Below, in pieces: positions 37,683-38,175 of a stretch of 64,000 nucleotides of DNA (its first letter is position 1; every line of letters starts with the position of its first letter). Position numbers and translations under genes: made by a program. The notes under the pieces are model-generated. The model ran no database searches, was not told the DNA's origin, and saw nothing but the letters and a program-made list of their open reading frames with translations. This stretch comes from Saccharopolyspora aridisoli (GTDB lineage: Bacteria; Actinomycetota; Actinomycetes; Mycobacteriales; Pseudonocardiaceae): NCBI RefSeq assembly GCF_004348445.1, contig NZ_SMKV01000011.1, positions 111,517 to 175,516 on the forward strand, written 5' to 3'.

Positions 37683-38175
37683 GCCGATCTCTCCTCGTGA
37701 CTGACCCGGCCGAATGACTCGGCGGGTGAGTTGATGGTCTCGGGTTCACCCTATCTGCCTCGACAGCCCCCGCACGTGGGCGGTCGCGGGCCATCACCGC
37801 GAGTTCGGGTGAGCGCCGCCGAGCATACCCGTCGAACCCCGGGTGAGCGTCATCTTCGCAGTTCAGATGCCCATCCCGGGCGGTGACGAAAATGCGCCAC
37901 CGGTGATCGGAGTCTCTGCACCGGTTCGGCGAGAGCGGCGTTGACGCTTCCGCAGCACTCACCGCCCAAAACCCAGACCGTCAGGCAAGCGGCGAAGCCG
38001 CTTCCTCTTCACCCCACCCGAGCAACCGGCACCGCCGCGGGTTCTGAGCGGCTCTCCGGCGAGGACGGCCACTCCGCCGTGCATTGGACATGCATCAGGA
38101 GTGGCACCCGCAGTCCGCAGAGCCGCTCAGGTTCCGCTACCCGCACCGCCGCGCAGAACGAGTGCGAACAAGAGA
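37683..38175. other. whiA-gap intergenic region with gap promoter and repeat copy D
   Basis: 493 bases without a credible gene. The right part (37984-38150) is the best-preserved copy of the dispersed element. The left 300 bases must hold the gap promoter. On the minus strand GGGTATGCT (near 37825) is a candidate -10 but I see no convincing -35. No riboswitch or tRNA fold was recognised. Confidence 0.5.
37984..38150 (+). repeat. Dispersed intergenic element (copy D, best preserved)
   Basis: Nested structure. The 5' hairpin is AAGCGGC-GAA-GCCGCTT (37987-38003). The main stem is CTGAGCGGCTCT (38044-38055) with AGAGCCGCTCAG (38119-38130). The inner stem is GCCACTCC (38068-38075) with GGAGTGGC (38098-38105), and the apical stem is TGCAT/ATGCA (38080-38094). 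Flanking conserved blocks are CCCGAGCAACCGGCACCGCC upstream and GTTCCGCTACCCGCACCGCC at the end. Confidence 0.88.

What the first reader, a model, noticed from the sequence alone, without database searches (positions are those of the whole stretch)
37984..38150. A dispersed, structured intergenic element of about 150-170 bp in four copies plus one remnant
The same layout recurs at 15328-15477, 33489-33658, 37984-38150, in reverse at 44061-44216, and as a 3' remnant at 3769-3806. It is a small 5' hairpin, a conserved block CCGAGCAACCGGCACCGCC then GCGGGTTCT, a long stem enclosing a variable centre, and a conserved 3' block GTTCCGCTACCCGCACCGC. All copies are intergenic. Orientation does not follow transcription, which suggests a non-autonomous mobile or REP/MITE-like element rather than a cis-riboregulator. 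I know of no named family with this sequence.
Basis: partly seen in the sequence, partly recalled or inferred. Interest (0 to 1): 0.8.

Follow-up and report, generated by a model that had tools for sequence, protein, structure and literature searches.

The report
Jumping RNA hairpin at gene ends
This stretch of an actinomycete genome carries copies of a short non-coding DNA element that occurs at least 140 times in that genome and whose sequence has been kept able to fold into one RNA shape; it likely spreads by borrowing the enzymes of other jumping elements and would matter as a mobile RNA module that likely shields the ends of genes.

Summary
In sister genome G003 copies have terminal inverted repeats and 3-bp duplications, and the ends match a resident IS5-family insertion sequence. 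End sequences differ between lineages while the ~125-nt core stays the same. Three window sites lack the element in most relatives. In another genus 13 of 13 checked copies lie with the 3' end at a stop codon; at one such site (gatB) five species kept the fold through paired changes. Best reading: a MITE-type passenger with interchangeable ends and a selected RNA core, likely a transcription insulator at gene 3' ends. Function is inferred; ends in the window's own genome were not resolved (0 of 25).

The parts
37979..38167 (+). full copy between whiA (stop at 38176, minus strand) and gap (start at 37682, minus strand)
   Evidence: R1 203 bits, E 5.9e-37; neighbours named by NCBIfam TIGR00647 and TIGR01534
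37987..38003 (+). 5' hairpin AAGCGGCGAAGCCGCTT of that copy
   Evidence: sequence, fold, helix 1 (8 of 9 pairs with a change on both sides)
38022..38036 (+). conserved 5' block GCAACCGGCACCGCC, first half of a 15-bp direct repeat
   Evidence: sequence; conserved in A6
38037..38059 (+). 5' arm of the long stem
38079..38096 (+). inner hairpin (GTGCAT / ATGCAT)
38115..38137 (+). 3' arm of the long stem
38136..38150 (+). conserved 3' block GCTACCCGCACCGCC, second half of the direct repeat
   Evidence: sequence; conserved in A6
15320..15494 (+). full copy between two convergent reading frames (stops at 15298 and 15504); also at the same site in G016 and G001, absent in G010
   Evidence: R1 134.5 bits; ORFs
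33483..33677 (+). full copy
   Evidence: R1 133.5 bits
44062..44223 (-). diverged full copy filling the gap between two convergent genes (stops at 44052 and 44229)
   Evidence: R1 83.4 bits; gene calls; absent in nearest relative G016
3650..3820 (+). weak match containing the 3' remnant
   Evidence: R1 22.4 bits, E 0.052

Best explanation
It is a dispersed non-coding element that likely moves as a MITE-type passenger of IS5-family insertion sequences and carries a conserved RNA-folding core that likely acts at the 3' ends of genes. Shown: a ~125-nt core with a long covarying stem flanked by a 15-bp direct repeat, in more than a hundred places in each of two genomes and in 13 of 46 sampled genera; in sister genome G003 it lies inside elements of about 230 bp with terminal inverted repeats and 3-bp target duplications, and in G007 and G017 inside elements of about 265 bp with other repeated ends; one lineage's ends match a resident IS5-family element. 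Inferred: that transposase mobilises it in trans, and the ends have been exchanged during its history. Shown: base-pair changes favour folding of the plus strand, and in one genus every checked copy has its 3' end at the stop codon of a gene that reads toward it. Inferred (about 0.35 by itself): the plus-strand RNA fold stops or pauses transcription running antisense into that gene's 3' end, so that an insertion at a stop codon or terminator is tolerated and later kept.
For: Copies: 140 of 150 scored candidates in this genome; 124 of 150 in G003; 56 of 200 family genomes, 13 of 46 genera. Fold: (covariation score reached by 0 of 500 shuffles in both; slid structures 37-48% of cells paired against 86% and 96%). 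Strand: G-U 240 against C-A 24 cells over the 39 pairs of R2; without three nearly invariant wobble pairs 79 against 24, and 13 pairs lean to G-U, 8 to C-A (the wider structure gives 254 against 43). Mobility: whiA site filled in 3 of 22 genomes, with a clean empty/filled pair G017/G007, the insertion lying in the middle of the palindrome behind whiA. TIR/TSD: 20 of 30 G003 copies have a 14-bp inverted match (10-14 identical) directly inside an exact 3-bp TNA duplication. Partner: IS5-family transposase (NF033580) between 22-bp TIRs AGTGCCTGTCTTTGATCTTGGG; ten G003 places give the same top score. Differing ends on one core. In-place selection: gatB copy in 5 species, 7 of 22 stem pairs changed on both sides, 97% of cells paired. 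Position: in this genome 22 of 44 copies have a stop codon within 17 nt of the 3' end, 7 of 44 within 17 nt of the 5' end; in genus g49 13 of 13 checked copies have it between 9 nt inside and 21 nt outside the 3' end (three weak matches not checked).
Against: In the window's own genome no copy reached the TIR/TSD threshold (0 of 25); its copies may be old or use other ends. Overall 26 of 107 copies reach score 14 against 2 of 321 mismatched pairings, but 21 of the 26 are from G003, and at least four of the rest (L104, L122, L130, L136) pair the palindromic target rather than the element's ends. End types other than those of G003, G007/G017 and G012 rest on a few copies read by eye. No partner was identified for the G007 or G013 end types; the only IS5-type repeats resolved in G013 differ. 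Young copies in G003 show no one-sided preference (stop on the 3' side 21 of 30, on the 5' side 24 of 30). Half of the strand signal comes from three pairs. One shuffle measure is not exceptional at gatB (further pair types, 184 of 500) and one of 500 shuffles reached the number of two-sided pairs. No promoter scan was made; no T run follows the stem by eye. No expression data were seen. Gene neighbours come from a crude GC3 caller with known misses (it missed the minus-strand frame ending at 15504).
Confidence: 0.6

Rival explanations
1. A plain MITE without a job: the paired arms are kept equal by template switching or by conversion between copies, and insertions survive only where they do no harm, that is between genes.
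For: Orthologous copies can carry quite different stems (G000 and G016 at whiA; G000, G016 and G001 at the 15328 site), as conversion from another copy would give; young copies cluster in convergent gaps (18 of 30).
Against: gatB copies show wobble intermediates, in genomes that hold only 1-4 matches; conserved internal-loop bases and nearly invariant G-U pairs are not explained by arm copying; the excess of G-U over C-A on one strand is not expected.
Confidence: 0.2
2. A dispersed small-RNA gene family: each copy makes a plus-strand RNA from its own promoter that acts elsewhere in the cell.
For: Plus-strand fold with a 5' hairpin and conserved blocks outside the stem; a Saccharopolyspora erythraea RNA-seq study reports 190 putative intergenic ncRNAs and antisense signal enriched at gene 3' ends (PMC3610266, passages), not mapped to this element.
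Against: No promoter was looked for with a tool; more than a hundred copies in some genomes and one in others is odd for a trans-acting RNA; the tight 3'-end placement suggests a local role.
Confidence: 0.13
3. A terminator for the gene that reads into it (minus strand), replacing the one lost by insertion.
For: The minus strand follows the stop codon directly; the copies at 44062 and 15320 make up nearly the whole gap between convergent genes; the minus strand also folds stably.
Against: Wobble pairs are kept on the plus strand and would be C-A mismatches on the minus strand; no T run by eye.
Confidence: 0.12
4. Random GC-rich similarity without a shared origin.
For: The copies are 65-76% G+C.
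Against: E-values to 6e-37, shared boundaries, covariation, empty sites.
Confidence: 0.01

Closest known systems
RNA-folding bacterial MITEs: Correia/NEMIS, ERIC, RUP (review PMC2229807, passages read)
   Same: about 100-200 bp repeats with long stem-loops in the transcript; TIRs and target duplications listed for these three; RUP is believed to be moved by the transposase of an insertion sequence; the effect of ERIC on mRNA depends on its orientation
   Different: Here a constant core is found with several different terminal sequences; the long stem is internal and not formed by the TIRs; covariation and conserved internal loops; different host family. No sequence comparison with those families was made
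MITEs of IS5-family elements (subgroup names IS427/IS1031/ISL2 and their TSD types are recalled, not tested)
   Same: In G003 nearly the same TIR as a resident IS5-family element, and TSD TNA
   Different: The core is shared with elements that have other ends; whether it derives from any IS was not tested
Caulobacter CIR repeats (PMC2229807, passage)
   Same: two arms joined by a linker; intergenic
   Different: CIRs carry a GANTC motif, not looked for here; here TIRs exist in relatives
Putative Pseudonocardia MITEs predicted with MITE Tracker (PMC12542641, passages read)
   Same: same family of bacteria (recalled), predicted MITEs, some between genes
   Different: no sequence or structure is given in the passages read, so identity cannot be judged

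Membership tests
MITE (IS5-family type) | terminal inverted repeats | tested here: met
   G003: 21 of 30 copies reach score 14, against 2 of 321 mismatched pairings; constant ends GAG(C)GTTTTTC in G007/G017 copies by eye. In the window's own genome not met: 0 of 25
MITE (IS5-family type) | target site duplication | tested here: met
   exact 3-bp TNA in 20 of 30 G003 copies; AAT, ATT or CAT in several G007 copies by eye. Not resolved in the own genome
MITE (IS5-family type) | TIRs shared with an autonomous element | tested here: met
   G003 IS5-family element, TIR AGTGCCTGTCTTTGATCTTGGG; not found for other end types
MITE (IS5-family type) | no transposase gene inside | tested here: met
   whole element about 230-265 bp; core lengths differ by 1-2 nt and no frame is open in all 55 copies, though one plus frame is open in 47 of 55
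MITE (IS5-family type) | transposition in trans observed | not testable with these tools
   needs a bench assay
REP / RAYT | short REP hairpins and a linked Y1 RAYT transposase (recalled) | not tested
   no RAYT search was made; the element is longer and has TIR/TSD in relatives
Rfam RNA family (any of 4227) | match to a curated model | tested here: not met
   no match at gathering score in the window; for three loci only matches far below cut-off (microRNA models on the stem)
Intrinsic terminator | stem followed by a T run | tested here: not met
   no T run after either arm in the copies printed, judged by eye
Correia/NEMIS or ERIC | family-specific TIR and sequence | not tested
   no sequence comparison made

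The most novel reading that the evidence does not exclude
A mobile RNA module that changes vehicles: one RNA fold has been carried through a bacterial family inside MITEs whose ends were exchanged for those of successive IS groups, and individual copies have been domesticated at gene 3' ends (gatB and others) as one-way RNA insulators against antisense transcription.
Probability: 0.3. Interest if true: 0.8.

Novelty: new variant of a known kind. Interest (0 to 1): 0.62.

Why it matters
If right, it shows a transposable element whose constant part is an RNA structure rather than its ends, and gives natural in-place experiments (five species at gatB) for what a 3'-end RNA does in actinobacteria. 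It is also a practical annotation family: more than a hundred copies in each of two genomes, with no Rfam model.

Tried and rejected
Coding element: rejected, because core lengths differ by 1-2 nt between copies and no frame is open in all 55; one plus frame is open in 47 of 55 and was not pursued. Replication-strand bias: in G003 67% of 124 copies are co-oriented with a replichore split (origin assumed at position 0), which I attribute to gene orientation without having measured it. IS200/605- or group II-type movement: not favoured given TIR and TSD in relatives; not tested directly. Known RNA: Rfam negative. Taxonomic limit: a DNA search of 41 genomes hit 22 of 22 of the genus, the own one included (G019 only at E 6e-4), and 2 of 19 others only at E 1.7e-4 and 7.5e-4, taken as chance; the order-wide model search hit 14 of 200, 12 in the family and 2 in one genus of another family at best E 5e-9 and 6e-8, not followed up. 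The automatic TIR search allows no gaps, so it undercounts G007/G017. Rows dropped: 3 of 47 own-genome copies without both neighbours called; 5 divergent rows of A3 not used for A4; 6 of 61 rows not used for A6; copies without a full core match dropped; 3 of 16 weak matches not examined. Literature: seven searches, listings of at most 20 papers each; four papers seen in passages, one of them also by abstract and outline; supplementary files could not be opened.

Full report
Observation. The four copies and the remnant are at the stated places. A DNA search of the whole genome returned 40 places, the query included, which is the cap; a covariance model built from 28 copies (R1) returned 140 of 150 scored candidates at E<=0.001. 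This is a lower bound.

Anatomy. In this genome 28 of 47 pairs have changes on both sides, and no shuffle of 500 reaches the covariation score, though one reaches the number of such pairs. For 55 copies (44 from 15 sister genomes, 11 from this one) 20 of 39 pairs do, and 95.6% of cells pair, against 84.4% shuffled and 38-46% slid. Over those 39 pairs there are 240 G-U and 24 C-A cells; without three nearly invariant wobble pairs 79 and 24, half of the 79 coming from three pairs, with 13 pairs leaning to G-U and 8 to C-A. This favours the plus strand as the one that folds.

Who has it. In the family 56 of 200 genomes and 13 of 46 genera have it; in the order 14 of 200, two of them outside the family.

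Mobility. At whiA-gap 3 of 22 genomes hold a full copy (this one, G016, G007) and one more, G010, a weak partial match. G017 and G007 give a clean empty/filled pair: the insertion lies in the middle of the palindrome CAGTTTCAATTGAAACTG behind whiA, between short inverted repeats GAG(C)GTTTTTC. At the 44062 site 20 genomes gave a comparable locus; the nearest relative G016 has no copy there, while G006 and G007 have copies nearby in the other orientation. At the 15328 site the same place is filled in 3 of 22 genomes (this one, G016, G001) and in G010 is a gap of five bases between convergent stops.

Ends. Copies in G003 have TIRs (GWGCCTGTCTTYGAAC in most) and 3-bp TNA duplications: 20 of 30 show both, and 21 of 30 reach a score that 2 of 321 mismatched controls reach. 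G007 and G017 copies end in GAG(C)GTTTTTC, and one G012 copy in a similar sequence; a few G011, G013, G002 and G014 copies have GATGGTTGATTCC-like ends; G008 and G015 others (by eye). The core between them is one family. In the window's own genome 0 of 25 copies reach the threshold. Of the 26 of 107 copies above it, at least four outside G003 pair the palindromic target instead of the element's ends. G003 also holds an IS5-family element (NF033580; DUF4096 and DDE domains), ten places giving the same top score, with 22-bp TIRs nearly identical to those of the element; in 4 of 7 fetched copies, all those whose repeats were resolved, it is itself inserted in an element core at CTGAG. Mobilisation in trans by this transposase is an inference. 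No partner was found for other end types.

Place and selection. In this genome the 3' end faces a stop codon in 30 of 44 copies and the 5' end in 19 of 44; within 17 nt the counts are 22 and 7. In genus g49, with 1-4 matches per genome, 13 of 13 checked copies have a stop codon between 9 nt inside and 21 nt outside the 3' end. Five of these are at gatB in five species (one named by NCBIfam, the others by the same C-terminal sequence), and there 7 of 22 stem pairs changed on both sides while 97% of cells stay paired; G-U cells occur, C-A cells do not. In G003, with young copies, both sides face stops about equally (21 and 24 of 30), so the orientation of old copies looks like retention rather than target choice. 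That rests on few genomes and a crude gene caller.

Mechanism. The fold is kept on the strand that runs antisense into the neighbouring gene's 3' end. The simplest local role is a one-way transcription insulator: RNA polymerase coming toward the gene end makes the fold and is stopped, or its RNA is cut, so that insertions at stop codons and terminators are tolerated and some are kept. This step is untested. RNA-seq of S. erythraea reports antisense signal enriched at gene 3' ends and 190 putative intergenic ncRNAs (PMC3610266, abstract and passages); PMC3827479 (passages) predicts sRNAs there. Neither was mapped to this element.

Known or new. No Rfam family. The listings of the literature searches (open-licence papers only) showed no description of this element. 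The nearest kind is the RNA-folding MITEs of the review PMC2229807 (passages). What is unusual is the constant structured core with differing ends and the selection in place.

Noticed in passing
L093 and L095, whiA-gap locus of G015 and G008: A different palindromic insert with ends like CGTCACCAGGGGACAGTTTT sits at the same intergenic place.
   Followed up: no
L108, L439, L470, L472 and others, behind stop codons: Near-perfect palindromes (GTTTCAATTGAAAC, GTTTTCATGAAAAC, CGAATTTCGCGCGAAATTCG) recur behind genes in this genus, sometimes in series; one is the insertion target in G007.
   Followed up: no
L211, L216, L226, L231 (G003): The IS5-family element uses the element core (CTGAG/CTCAG) as landing site, and elements are nested in elements there.
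   Followed up: partly
window 38364-38442 and 45876-45957: ARAGORN tRNA calls lie inside whiA and inside another called gene; probably false.
   Followed up: no
L096 1439-1485 (G010, behind whiA): A weak partial model match (25 bits) that may be a decayed copy of the stem.
   Followed up: no
G036 and G244, another family of the order: Matches of 39-56 bits outside the family, possibly transfer or a distant relative.
   Followed up: no
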